From Nereocystis luetkeana (Eukaryota > Sar > Phaeophyceae > Laminariales > Laminariaceae), in contig JARUPZ010000030.1 of the NCBI GenBank assembly GCA_031213475.1, positions 798,580 to 862,579 of the forward strand: 64,000 nucleotides of DNA, read 5' to 3'. Below, one piece after another: positions 86 to 60,000 of the stretch; the stretch's first letter is position 1; every line of letters starts with the position of its first letter. The translations under genes were made by a program, and so were the position numbers. The notes below the pieces were generated by a model, which saw only the letters and a list, made by a program, of their open reading frames with translations, ran no database searches and was not told the DNA's origin.

Positions 86-3000
86 CTACAAAAAATACGG
101 ACGACGGGGGAGAAGTTACGAAGAACGTAATGAACTCGTACCAGGTACGTACGTACGTACGCAAGTGTTTACACATAAAAAACGGAGCGAACATAAATCA
201 TAACAGGAGTTTGAGGTACGTGGGTGGCGTTTGGTGGATCCGTGTGTGCGCGCACTCCCAGGGGCTGGCGGACAGGACGTGAAGGGCTTCGTGTTGAGTG
301 ACTTCTCGTTGTCCTGGCCCCCCGCAAGGGCGGGTAGAACCGAGGGTCAGGCGAAGTCACTTGCCCTGGGAGGCAAACCGACCAATAACAGCGCGAGCTC
401 GTTCGAATGTTCGTCTCTCGCCAATCCATTCCTCCCCGAGACCGAGGTACGCGATGATCGACGACCTCCTTCCGCCGACGCACTAAATAAACACAACCAG
501 GACGCACACAAAACGCGCACACGCACGTAAACTCACACACGTTGAACACCCATACATCGACGCATCTACTCAACAGCACTAAAAATATCCCAACCCGCGG
601 ATTACCCCCCCCCTCTCCATCTCGAAAGGGATGCATGATCAACGGCCAAATGACTACAATTCAAGCAACAAATCAGTACCCCCCCCAACACCCCCCCCCC
701 CCCTCCTCCCCTCCGACACCTATCACACCAGTCTCCTAAACACGTCTCCCTCCCCTGCCCGAGTACACCCCCCCCCCCCCTCCCCCGCCCCCTCCTCCAA
801 CCCCCTGCCCACCCCCCCAGCCCAGTCCAGCCCACCCACCCACCCACCCACCCACCCACCTGAGCCTCGCCCTCCACCTCCCCGTCCTTCCCCACGCGCG
901 GCGTCGGCCCTGGCCGACCCCCTCCCCCGCCTCCTCCTCCTCCTCCTCCTCCTCCCCCTATCCTGGAGCCGTCCCCCGATTTTTTCGAAGACCCCGACGA
1001 CTCCGACTTGAGCCCCCCCGCCCCCCCACCCCCCCCCCCCCCCCCCACCGCCTCCATTAGACCCCCCCCTTCTCGATTTTTTCGTCTTGGGTGTCTTATT
1101 ACCCCCTCCTCCCCCTCCTCCACCACCACCACCACCACCACCACCACCATCCGCCGCCATTGCCGTTGCTGCTGCTGCCACTGCTGCCACCGCCGCATCC
1201 TTACCTCTGGTCTTAGCATCCTCCTCGTCTCCGCTCGCCTCCTCCCCGACCCCGGCACCGTCACCCGTCAAAGGTGACCGTCTACCGCCATCGCCATCCT
1301 CACCACCACCACCACCACCACCGCCCTCTTGCTGGGCGTTCGAGGAGCGGTCTCTCGCTCTAGACTTGCCCTTTGAGGAGGAGGAGGAGGAGGAGGAGGT
1401 GGTGGTGGTGCCAGTGGCCGAGGAAGGTGCGGCGGCGGAGGAGGAGGAGGAGGAGGACCCCTTGCTTTTGCTGCCTGAGGTGGGGGGAGGGGAGCGACGA
1501 GGAGGGAAGGGGGCGAGGTAGAGCGGACGGGGGGAGGAGCGGAGGGGAGGGGAAGCAGGAGGAGGAGGAGGAGGAGGAGGTAAGACGGGCGGGACGGGGC
1601 GGGGGGGGAGGCAACGAATAATATCGAGGGGCGAGCAGGACTGAGATCGACCTGTGTTGGTTGTTGGGAGTAGCGGGGAAACGCACATCGACGACAAATC
1701 TAGCGGTCGGCACGGACGGATGAGAACAACGGCACTGCAAGTCACAGCTCCAGTACTGTACCGTGCCGTACAGGTACTGCTGTAGAGACTACCTGATGAT
1801 GTTGTTGCGACGATGCCATCGTTGGTGATGGCGGTGACAGCGGCGGTCGGGACCTATCCCCCCGCAAGCAACCAATCAATCAACCAACCAACCAAATTAA
1901 CCAACAGCCCAACCAACCAACCCAATCACCGCAAAAAAAAACCCCAGCAATAATCAGACATTCAAGAACAGAAACGAAAACCGCCAAATTACTGAACAAC
2001 GTCAAACAAACAACCACCCACACAACCCCCCCCAACACACCAAATGAGACCATCCAACGACCACGAAGCCATCGAGCAACCAACTGACCCACTAACCGAC
2101 CAAGCAACCAAACCATCCAACAACCAAGAAGCCGTCACGCAACCAACGAACCCAGTGGAGTTTACCACTTATTAGAGATTGGGTTTGGCTTAGGGTCAGG
2201 GTTAGGGTTCCTCTGATTGGCTCAGGGTCAGCGTTAGGGTTGCTCTGATTGGCTTAGCGCCAGGGTTACTTCTATTGGTCTCGTACACAGTGTGTGTGTC
2301 AACCATTTTTTCGAATAAATGGTAAGCAATTCTGAAAAAAAAAAAAAAAAAAAAAAAAACCGAACCGAACCCACCCAGCTAACCAACCAACCTGATATAC
2401 ACTCACCTGCTTTCTTGGAGGCTTTCTTCGCCGGCGGCTTCCTCTCGAACCTTACCTGCCCCTGCTTGCGGTGCATGACGCACAGGAACAGCTGGCGGCA
2501 AGGGCAACGGCAGCAGCACAGCACAGGACCGTAAAAAGTCGCAAAACATTACAAAAAACATCAAACGTGAATAACAACGGCAACCAAACGGAGAGAGGTT
2601 GAGTGGGAGGGTAAGATAGAAAGAGCGAGAGGGTGAGAGACAAAAAAAATATAGCGAAAGAGAGAGAGGGGGGGGGAGGGGGTGTACTCGATAGGAGATA
2701 TGCACTCGATCTCATGCATGGCCAGGGTCGTATGACCATAGACCCTCGCATACCTACAATGCCGGGACGGAGCATGTCGGGTTTTCACCGACCAGGCAGA
2801 CATTGCTTGCACCAAGCGCGAAGCGCCGTGAGGTGTCTGGCGAGTCGCATGAAGGGTGAGCTGCATCCTACCAAGAATCGCTTGTGAGGCGGACTTTCTT
2901 GCATATGGATGACAGCTTCCATGAGTTGATTTAATTTCCGGTGTAGGCATTTCCAGAGACAGCAATGGGAGTACAACGTAACTGCCTCTTGGGTGCCTTA

Positions 3001-57000: not shown

Positions 57001-60000
57001 TTCCGAGCCGCTTTTTTCGCGAAACCAACAGGGGATACACACACGCCAGAAAATGTTGGCGTTGCAAACGTCTGAATACGCAAGTCAAGGTATTTCTGAG
57101 GACGCATGCATCGCACGGCGTTTTCGCTCTTCCCGTTCTATTAATAAAAATAAAACCACCTTGGAACCCCCCCCCTAAGGGAGTGCGTCGTGTGCTGTGA
57201 CGACATCTTGGGTGTTGCATACGGTATGTATGCATTTACAACACAACGTGTCATATCCATATCGTATATCCACGAAGTACAGGCTGACAAATGTCCGGTC
57301 TATTACGTACGAGATTCGCCATATTTACCGATTGTTCTTCTTACCAGATCACATGGTTGACGTTCGAGAAAATGCTCCGGTGTTGATGTGCGCTGTACCT
57401 GGTGCATAATAATATAAACTGGTGTCTACAGTCAGTACAGTCAGCAGTAGTACTCGTACTACTTCTGTAGCATATGATCCCGAACGAATCTGCTGACGAC
57501 GTGACCTGAAACCTGAAGGTGACGTGTAAATGTGGCGGGGGTTCTCCACGAAAGAGATAAACCCCGAGCTCCAAGTTTTTAGGACCGCAGTCCCATTGTG
57601 GGAACAACACATCGGTAATTCGGAGTGGTTTGCCCCCCAAATGGGACTGCAGCACTAATAAAGGGGTTCAAGATTCCCTCTCGCTTCGCGCGAGAGAGGA
57701 ATGTGAAGGCACACCCACGAAACGGCACGCCTGCATACGATATGCAACACCTACTGTAGGTCCCGGCCGAAGCCGCTCAAGACCAAAATGAGGCCGACAT
57801 ACCATACACACAACACGCAGGAGGCGGGCGCCCTTCATGCACACTCGGTACGCAGTGGTCTCTTCCTAATGCCGGTTGCCCGCTATATACCTGGTACTTA
57901 AATCAGTACCCGTGGAAATCGCTTGGCACAGATGGGATTTAATATTAACAGTGTTGTACGCACGCAGTGCCGGTGGCCGCAGTAGTTAGTGCCGTTATGG
58001 TTGGCTGGCGCATACCGGCACTATAGAGGGACCGCTATTACTCTCTACACATAACCGCGACAGGAAGGTGAATCCGCATACCGTACCCAACACCCAGGAC
58101 AAGCATGTATGTATCCAACATGAGGGAGAACCCGCAATACGTGCGGCACAGCGGCATCGTCCTCAATACGTACGTAAGGTGTATCCCGGACGAGGTACGG
58201 CTGCTGCACGCTGCACCCTCAACGTGTGCACATGTTATATGTCACGCATTTGGTGCCCCTTTTAACCGTTCTCTGCATCCCGAAACAAAGGTATACCAGG
58301 TATTCTCGATAAGGTACTACTATGTTTGCATGTATCCGCGGTAAGCTACATACAGTAGTAGTAGTAGTACCGCAATTACTGCTGCAGGCTGTAGGTATGT
58401 CCGCGCTCAGGTACATATATGTTACGTACAACGCAGCTCGACGGGGTCCTTCGATCTCTCTCCGCATGCCACGGAAAGCGGTAACGCGACGCCATCTCGA
58501 CGGCCCACTCGAACACAGCAGTAGGCTACTGATGCTGCAACTCCTGGTGCGTCTCTACTATTCGTAGAGCAGGCTACTGATGTTGCAGCTCTACTCCTAC
58601 TGCATCCTACTATGGTGCAGCTCAAGGGTACAATGCCACATCATACGTAGGACGGTAGTATTTATAGTGTGAACACTGAGTGTTGTATTGGCTGAAGGGT
58701 ACTGGCGTACCGTTGGGTGAGACAATTGGTGCGGAAGTAGGAATAGTCAGCAGCAGATGCTTACAACCGGCGCACAACCCCGTCTTTCATTTAGCCGTGC
58801 CCTCCCCCAGTGTCTACTGCAAGCTGTAACTGTCTCCAGCAGTACAAGCAATAGTACTATTAATAGTGCCGGGCGGCCATCATATTAATAGTACAGCAGT
58901 ACAGTCAGTACGCGACAGCAGTGAAGAGACCCGTATTTTGGCCAAGGCTTGCGGCTAGTTGTGATATCAACGTTGAGCGTAGGCTCTTAAAGGCTATTAA
59001 TAGTAAATAAATAGGATTGAGAGTTGCGATCCTCGGTGAGCACAAACGCTGATTATTATGGGGGGCCATAGCATATACCAGGGGGGGCCTACGGTACACA
59101 CAAAAACTTACCATATTTACCTACTGCAGTATTTTTACGAACAATATTTGGTCCTATCTGCTATGCCCCCCCGCAATAGTTGAATTTTGAAAAAAACTCA
59201 GACTGAAATTCTCATCAACCCCCAAATTCTCAAAACAAGGTCGCGCTCTGCAGTATTAATAGTTGGCAGCTGTGTGACACTTCTCTGTATCTGGGGCGAC
59301 GCATTCGGACACTCGCACACGTCTACGCGTCTGTCTGCACCTCGACTGGCCGCTGCCGCCGTCATCTACCAAGGGTATCGTAGAGTCGGACAGATCATGA
59401 TCTGCCTCATCTTCGCCGTACAGATCAGTGGCTTGCGACATGTACATGATAAGGTACAGACCCCCCCGGCGAACGCAAACCGACTAGGTTCGTGGAAAAT
59501 TGGAATGTGAACAGATGGATGCATAATCTGTGAAAAATATATCTGTGAGCTGTACAAGCAGTGATCCCATCTGCTCGACGTGCGCCAGAGAGGGGTGTAC
59601 CAGGTATGCGATTACACGCTTTTTGTACTCTCTTGTGTTTTCACATAAAAACCGTTATTTCTGCCCCATGGACATCCAGCACACCCAGTGTCCGCCGTGC
59701 TGATGCTTCCATCCTACCAGGGTACCTGGTATTAATAGAGAGACGCCAACTCTTGAGGTCCGGCCTCAAGCTACGAGACAAGATACATTGCAAACAGAGG
59801 AGAGAGTGGCACGTAGAGCACAAGCACGCCGACCCAATGCCAAACGTACTGGGTACGAAAACTACTCCGTGCAGCCTCTGGTGCAGCAGCCGTGAAAACA
59901 TATCGAAATACGCCATCACACCGGAGGCAAAAACATGTACCATGGTAAGTCTAGTGGGGGGCGGGGGAGACAATCAAATTAACCGCTGCTTCCACCATGG

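What the first reader, a model, noticed from the sequence alone, without database searches (positions are those of the whole stretch)
139..59731. TACCWGGTA occurs 26 times: a CCWGG micro-insertion with TA duplication
Exact TACCAGGTA or TACCTGGTA starts at 139, 4594, 7270, 8918, 9439, 9458, 11694, 12126, 13827, 22233, 24316, 28816, 32840, 34292, 41897, 42895, 43999, 45082, 50237, 50244, 50277, 54174, 57888, 58294, 59598 and 59723. About 0.5 would be expected by chance in 64 kb. None is in an exon. Several repeat copies give empty-site comparisons: CATATAGGTTTTT becomes CATATACCTGGTAGGTTTTT (A copy 7); AGTTAATAGGACC becomes a form with TACCAGGTACCTGGTA (A copy 12, two events in a row); CACGTAGTG becomes CACGTACCAGGTAGTG (E at 12126). 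So TA turns into TA-CCWGG-TA. It looks like the footprint of a TA-targeting transposon, or a very small element of its own.
Basis: partly seen in the sequence, partly recalled or inferred. Interest (0 to 1): 0.85.

Follow-up and report, generated by a model that had tools for sequence, protein, structure and literature searches.

The report
Genome-wide transposon scars, TA-CCWGG-TA
A nine-letter palindrome recurs about every 2,500 letters of this large eukaryotic genome; it looks like the scar left each time an unidentified jumping gene that lands on 'TA' was cut out again, so the genome keeps a record of past jumps.

Summary
In detail: 26 exact TACCWGGTA in 64 kb, 0.40 expected. Genome-wide there are 182,395 in 465 Mb against 1,744 for the reversed pattern. 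They are derived 7-bp insertions: 12 of 12 informative sites in repeats are mostly plain TA in other copies, against 28 of 187 control sites. In one MITE a single TA was hit repeatedly; each filled copy's nearest relative is empty. The target is W-A-N4-R-TA-Y-N4-T-W: both sides WA in 25 of 92 sites, against 2.3% of TAs. A longer form is polar, CCAGGG 83 to CCTGGG 6 in 100 rows. This fits a cut-and-paste element ending TA|CCAGGG: two CCAGG overhangs anneal with a central A.A mismatch that becomes A or T. Tc1/mariner scars are given as 2-4 bp (PMC7913693, passage); this is 5. The donor was not found: half-ends are 1.16 times control, and the three candidates I could read extend past the predicted end. 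Scars seem to outnumber surviving donors greatly.

The parts
139..147 (.). TACCAGGTA scar
   Evidence: exact match
4594..4602 (.). TACCTGGTA scar in a MITE A copy
   Evidence: 1 empty homologue (window 44281-44344), 1 unclear
7269..7277 (.). TACCAGGTA scar
   Evidence: finding says 7270
8918..8926 (.). TACCAGGTA scar
9439..9466 (.). two scars, TACCTGGTA (9439) and TACCAGGTA (9458), around TACTACTGTA
   Evidence: homologues unclear
11694..11702 (.). TACCAGGTA scar
12126..12134 (.). TACCAGGTA scar in repeat E
   Evidence: 5 empty homologues (window 12505, L002 and L003 among them), 2 ambiguous, 1 unclear: CACG-TA-GTG
13827..13835 (.). TACCTGGTA scar
22233..22241 (.). TACCAGGTA scar
24316..24324 (.). 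TACCTGGTA scar
28816..28824 (.). TACCTGGTA scar
32840..32848 (.). TACCTGGTA scar
34292..34300 (.). TACCAGGTA scar
41897..41905 (.). TACCTGGTA scar
42895..42903 (.). TACCTGGTA scar at the hot TA of MITE A
   Evidence: 14 empty, 3 filled, 10 unclear homologues; nearest relative empty
43999..44007 (.). TACCAGGTA scar in a MITE A copy, at or beside the hot TA
   Evidence: its 20 homologues were all unclear
45082..45090 (.). TACCAGGTA scar at the hot TA of MITE A
   Evidence: 20 empty, 3 filled, 2 ambiguous, 3 unclear; nearest relative empty
50237..50252 (.). double scar TACCAGGTACCTGGTA at a TA of MITE A
   Evidence: gapped against window 15729 and L010 copies; window 15729 scored empty
50277..50285 (.). 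TACCAGGTA scar at the hot TA of MITE A
   Evidence: 20 empty, 2 filled, 6 unclear; nearest relative empty
54164..54172 (.). TACCAGGTA scar
   Evidence: finding says 54174
57888..57896 (.). TACCTGGTA scar
58294..58302 (.). TACCAGGTA scar
59598..59606 (.). TACCAGGTA scar
59715..59731 (.). six-base form TACCAGGGTA (59715) sharing its TA with the scar TACCTGGTA (59723)
37926..38041 (-). MITE A copy with a decayed scar (TACCTGATA) at the hot TA
15739..15847 (-). MITE A copy, empty at the hot TA (reference empty site)

Best explanation
Each TACCWGGTA is the excision scar of a cut-and-paste DNA transposon that inserts at TA (preferring W-A-N4-R-TA-Y-N4-T-W), duplicates the TA, and has ends reading TA|CCAGGG...CCCTGG|TA. 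On excision the transposase cuts about five bases inside each element end, leaving 3' overhangs CCAGG on both flanks. These anneal as C-G, C-G, A.A, G-C, G-C. End joining and mismatch repair turn the A.A pair into A or T, giving TACCAGGTA or TACCTGGTA. Losing the mismatch gives CCGG; keeping one more base gives the polar CCAGGG form. The scar fits the enzyme's own target, so some sites are hit again. Shown here: the insertion, TA duplication, target preference, recurrence, minor forms and polarity. Inferred: the excision step, the overhang length and the donor ends. The donor, its transposase and any activity are not shown.
For: Derived insertions: 12 of 12 informative sites majority empty against 28 of 187 control TAN5TA sites; the 12 include a few homologous or adjacent sites. 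Indels in repeats: 14 of 41 distinct 7-bp indels carry a TA duplication, CCAGG and CCTGG heading the list of inserts, and a 14-bp double occurs. MITE A: of 35 copies, three have CCWGG at one TA, one has CCGG there and two have decayed forms there; the nearest relative of each of the five exactly filled copies is an empty copy (filled pairs 0.73-0.83 alike, all pairs mean 0.816). Extended symmetric target: both sides WA in 25 of 92 sites against 2.3% of 13,842 TAs; it persists without doubles. The few CCGG (16) and CCAGGG (8) sites show similar -7/-6 flanks, while TATTAATA has a different flank. Six-base form 13,966 against 1,384 control; 83 CCAGGG, 6 CCTGGG, 6 CCAGGC, 5 CCTGGC of 100 rows. Doubles 15,917 against 2 control and about 1,364 expected at random. 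Decay is spread fairly evenly over the nine positions.
Against: No donor with ends TA|CCWGG was found. Half-ends TACCWGGV are 90,463 against 77,688 control. Three read candidates extend outward past the predicted end. Five bases exceeds the 2-4 bp stated for Tc1/mariner. No DDE_3 or Transposase_1 hit in the genome (the second search rang in no control genome). No pogo-like gene could be linked to these ends. About a third of the doubles look like tandem duplication rather than re-insertion. The CCGG sites favour C at -1, unlike the CCWGG sites.
Confidence: 0.74

Rival explanations
1. A direct micro-insertion: an enzyme opens a TA and adds or pastes in a five-base unit, with no long element ever present.
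For: No donor found; in held sequence the scar flanks share no common longer sequence apart from doubles and known repeats.
Against: The six-base form is polar (83 CCAGGG to 6 CCTGGG of 100 rows), which an end of a longer element explains and a self-contained palindrome does not. The TA duplication and extended symmetric target are transposase-like.
Confidence: 0.1
2. A dispersed palindromic signal kept by selection (for example a protein-binding or repair motif of the kind of cyanobacterial HIP1, recalled), gained by mutation.
For: Great over-representation of one palindrome.
Against: Sites arise as exact 7-bp insertions in single repeat copies; point decay is fairly even over all positions, so there is no sign of conservation.
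Confidence: 0.04
3. Scars from several TA-inserting families that share the terminal bases CCAGG, not one family.
For: Several TA-flanked families live here: MITE A (TA|TTACGGGGG) and a pogo-like element (TA|CAGTGGGG), and palindromic TA-N-TA words that could be their scars are in excess (TATTAATA; TACWGTA).
Against: Similar -7/-6 target bases for the CCWGG, CCGG and CCAGGG forms (the last two from 16 and 8 sites) suggest one enzyme type.
Confidence: 0.12

Closest known systems
Excision footprints of Tc1/mariner transposons (Sleeping Beauty TACWGTA type; Minos CGAG type, both recalled)
   Same: TA duplication around a few terminal bases; a palindromic scar with A or T at a central mismatch.
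   Different: Five bases between the TAs; a passage of PMC7913693 gives 2-4 bp for Tc1/mariner. About 182,000 scars with no donor seen.
Mariner Mos1 ends (CCAGGTG..., recalled)
   Same: Terminal bases CCAGG next to TA.
   Different: Mos1 scars are three bases (recalled); the predicted sixth base here is G; no Transposase_1 hit.
Pogo-like elements
   Same: TA target; present in this genome: 28 DDE_1 matches, one with ends TA|CAGTGGGG.
   Different: Those ends predict TACWGTA, not TACCWGGTA; none of the 8 DDE_1 loci read shows CCAGGG ends.
Ciliate TA-bounded internal eliminated sequences (recalled)
   Same: TA-bounded units removed on a large scale.
   Different: Excision there leaves one TA without a scar (recalled); no germline copy known here.

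Membership tests
Excision footprint of a TA-inserting cut-and-paste transposon | TA target duplicated around inserted bases | tested here: met
Excision footprint of a TA-inserting cut-and-paste transposon | Insertion is derived and recurrent, with minor end-joining variants | tested here: met
Excision footprint of a TA-inserting cut-and-paste transposon | Donor element whose terminal bases equal the scar | tested here: inconclusive
   not found; only about 350 kb of the genome was read
Tc1/mariner superfamily | Footprint of 2-4 bp (as stated in PMC7913693) | tested here: not met
   five bases; passage
Tc1/mariner superfamily | DDE_3 or Transposase_1 transposase | tested here: inconclusive
   no hit; the control rang nowhere
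Pogo-like superfamily | DDE_1 transposase in an element with CCAGGG ends | tested here: inconclusive
   28 DDE_1 matches; 8 loci read within about 1.5 kb, none with such ends
HIP1-like conserved palindrome | Motif conserved by selection | tested here: not met
   fairly even decay over positions; empty homologues

The most novel reading that the evidence does not exclude
This genome has been systematically cleared of a TA-bounded element: a host-controlled or domesticated excision machinery with an unusual five-base stagger removed nearly every one of well over 180,000 insertions, so the sequenced genome carries scars but almost no elements, in the manner of programmed DNA elimination but with a scar.
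Probability: 0.12. Interest if true: 0.9.

Novelty: new variant of a known kind. Interest (0 to 1): 0.64.

Why it matters
Excision scars are usually too short to tell from chance. Here one scar class is so distinctive that jumps can be counted, placed, ordered and dated across a whole genome, including sites hit twice. It predicts a transposase with a five-base stagger and a 16-bp target, which can be tested, and it poses the question why scars outnumber donors so strongly.

Tried and rejected
Rejected donors. (1) L023:9317-9447 looked like a 127-bp MITE with CCTGG ends; its relatives in L038-L048 share sequence beyond that end and belong to an older TIR family of about 870-970 bp. An earlier count said otherwise and is corrected in entry 4. 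(2) TACCAGGGTCGACGAGACGAT, 216 matches, is internal to a longer repeat. (3) C1:2557159/2559367, identical inner ends, lies in a longer inverted repeat that continues outward by at least the 20 bases read; notebook entry 6 took it for a likely donor before it was read. (4) Two further inverted pairs (C1:7169733/7170693 and C1:1646886/1652533) could not be read. (5) Scars as element ends with T-A as the next bases: in held sequence no shared flank apart from doubles and known repeats. (6) Pogo-like loci L029-L036: no CCWGG ends. Rfam (gathering threshold) and tRNA scans of the window found nothing. Literature: seven searches (the last listed no paper); I saw listings only, except passages of PMC12477816, PMC7913693 and PMC7386202. 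The string TACCAGGTA itself is in 119 papers, 10 of them listed, none about transposons by title. None of the listings or passages I saw describes this motif as a repeat. The host was not identified; a brown alga is a guess from recall of composition and repeats, not a result.
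Full report
Observation. The window holds exactly 26 TACCWGGTA; 100 dinucleotide shuffles give mean 0.40 and at most 3. Two of the 26 stated starts are off, by 1 and by 10 bases. The window lies in a 465,085,209-bp genome of 1,987 contigs. There the motif occurs 182,395 times, the reversed pattern 1,744 times, one site per 2.55 kb. In 20 ten-kb pieces, one from each of 20 contigs, there are 67 sites, mean 3.35, variance 7.2, two pieces with none. 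In these plus the window (264 kb) the count is 93 against 2.3 expected from an order-3 Markov model.

Insertion. Of 98 scar sites tested in held sequence, 18 had homologues in other repeat copies and 12 were informative; all 12 were empty (plain TA) in most informative homologues. The comparisons over the 18 were 82 empty, 9 filled, 6 ambiguous, 59 unclear. Of 187 informative control TAN5TA sites, 28 were mostly empty. The 12 are not fully independent: L023_2960 and L026_1235 are the same site in two copies (flanks), 50237 and 50244 form one double, and three are the same MITE position. The same test on other words gave mostly empty sites in 3 of 6 informative for TACCGGTA, 3 of 4 for TACWGTA, 1 of 4 for TACTCGTA/TACGAGTA, 1 of 2 for TATTAATA, 0 of 2 for TACCSGGTA and 0 of 6 for TACGTA. 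Among distinct indels between repeat copies, 14 of 41 seven-base indels have a TA duplication, with CCAGG and CCTGG heading the list of inserts.

Recurrence. MITE A is 105 bp with ends TA|TTACGGGGG. Among 35 copies found in held sequence, five carry an exact scar. Three of these (42895, 45082, 50277) sit at one TA (TA|GGTTTTT or TA|GGGTTTT follows), which fits the target consensus; 43999 lies at or beside it, and the one in L030 is at another TA. At the hot TA one further copy (L010) has a CCGG form and two window copies (37926 and 20242) have what look like decayed forms. The single nearest relative of each of the five filled copies is an empty copy; the filled L030 copy is third nearest to the filled 43936 copy. 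Filled pairs (0.73-0.83) are no more alike than all pairs (mean 0.816). So the site was probably hit repeatedly.

Target. Flanks show W at -7, A at -6 and R at -1, mirrored on the right. WA at -7/-6 occurs on at least one side in 65 of 92 sites and on both in 25, against 25.6% and 2.3% of 13,842 TAs. The scar itself fits this target. Doubles TACCWGGTACCWGGTA number 15,917 against 2 for the control and about 1,364 if scar TAs were hit at random. Of 59 doubles listed on the + strand, 40 have the same W twice, 14 A then T, 5 T then A (p 0.006), so I estimate that about a third are tandem duplications and about 10,000 are independent double hits; a few of the 59 overlap as triples.

Minor forms and polarity. 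CCGG between TAs occurs at 16 sites in 264 kb (32 against 6.5 expected when both strands are counted). One base longer, TACCWGGSTA occurs 13,966 times against 1,384. In the first 100 rows, all on contig C1, CCAGGG has 83, CCTGGG 6, CCAGGC 6, CCTGGC 5; 8 of the CCAGGG rows lie in or beside a tandem array, so 75 of 92 without them. Slippage of a palindrome would give CCAGGG and CCTGGG equally. The flanks of the few CCGG and CCAGGG sites resemble those of CCWGG sites at -7/-6, though CCGG sites favour C at -1; TATTAATA has other flanks. This is why I read the scar as the end of a longer element with terminus CCAGGG.

Age. Single-base neighbours number 224 against 103 expected, beside 186 exact (both strands), fairly evenly over positions. 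This gives roughly 7% change per site if all excess is decay, so the true number of scars exceeds the exact count.

Donor. Half-ends TACCWGGV are 90,463 against 77,688 reversed control. If the whole excess were donor ends there would be at most about 6,400 copies, roughly 28 scars per copy; this control is rough. Candidates were followed and rejected; two inverted pairs could not be read. DDE_3 and Transposase_1 gave no hit, DDE_1 gave 28 (its control genomes did not ring either). One DDE_1 element has ends TA|CAGTGGGG, which by the same logic predicts TACWGTA; this occurs 162,074 times against 54,742. Whether that element made those words was not tested.

Mechanism. Five-base 3' overhangs CCAGG on both flanks would pair at four of five bases with a central A.A mismatch, repaired to A or T. 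The same logic explains the known three-base scar TACWGTA (recalled). A passage of PMC7913693 gives 2-4 bp for Tc1/mariner, so a five-base scar would be a new variant. The excision step is inferred.

Limits. About 350 kb of the genome was read. The listed rows of pattern searches are only the first 100 places. Literature searching was limited to the held open papers and seven searches.

Noticed in passing
window 15739-15847 and 34 other copies in held sequence: MITE A, 105 bp, ends TTACGGGGGACCATAG, TA target duplication; 35 copies in about 350 kb of held sequence.
   Followed up: partly
genome-wide; 264-kb sample: TACWGTA is threefold over its reversed control (162,074 to 54,742) and TATTAATA has 48 sites against about 5 expected, the latter with its own flank preference TAC|..|GTA: perhaps scars of other families.
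   Followed up: partly
L029 37-2053, L031 1221-1897: Pogo-like (DDE_1) copies 99.7-100% identical in shared parts, ends TA|CAGTGGGG; L029 carries about 1.3 kb that L031 lacks.
   Followed up: partly
L038-L048, centre of each locus: Older TIR family of about 870-970 bp, TIR about 95 bp starting GCCAAAATCAGG; target duplication not recognised.
   Followed up: partly
window 3162-3950, 10086-10913, 20336-20914, minus strand: Frames with PHD-like, PHD and Helicase_C domains, perhaps exons of one chromatin gene.
   Followed up: no
L023 about 1164-7103: Long inverted repeat beside and including reverse-transcriptase sequence.
   Followed up: no
G000:C1:1305185-1308362: Seven copies of TACCAGGGTA spaced exactly 528 bp, a tandem array.
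   Followed up: no
G000:C1:2557139-2559387: Inverted repeat with 98 of 100 end bases alike on both arms, continuing outward past TACCAGGG.
   Followed up: no
window: Strand asymmetry (A over T, C over G) in all sixteen 4-kb steps and many long poly-C/poly-G runs.
   Followed up: no
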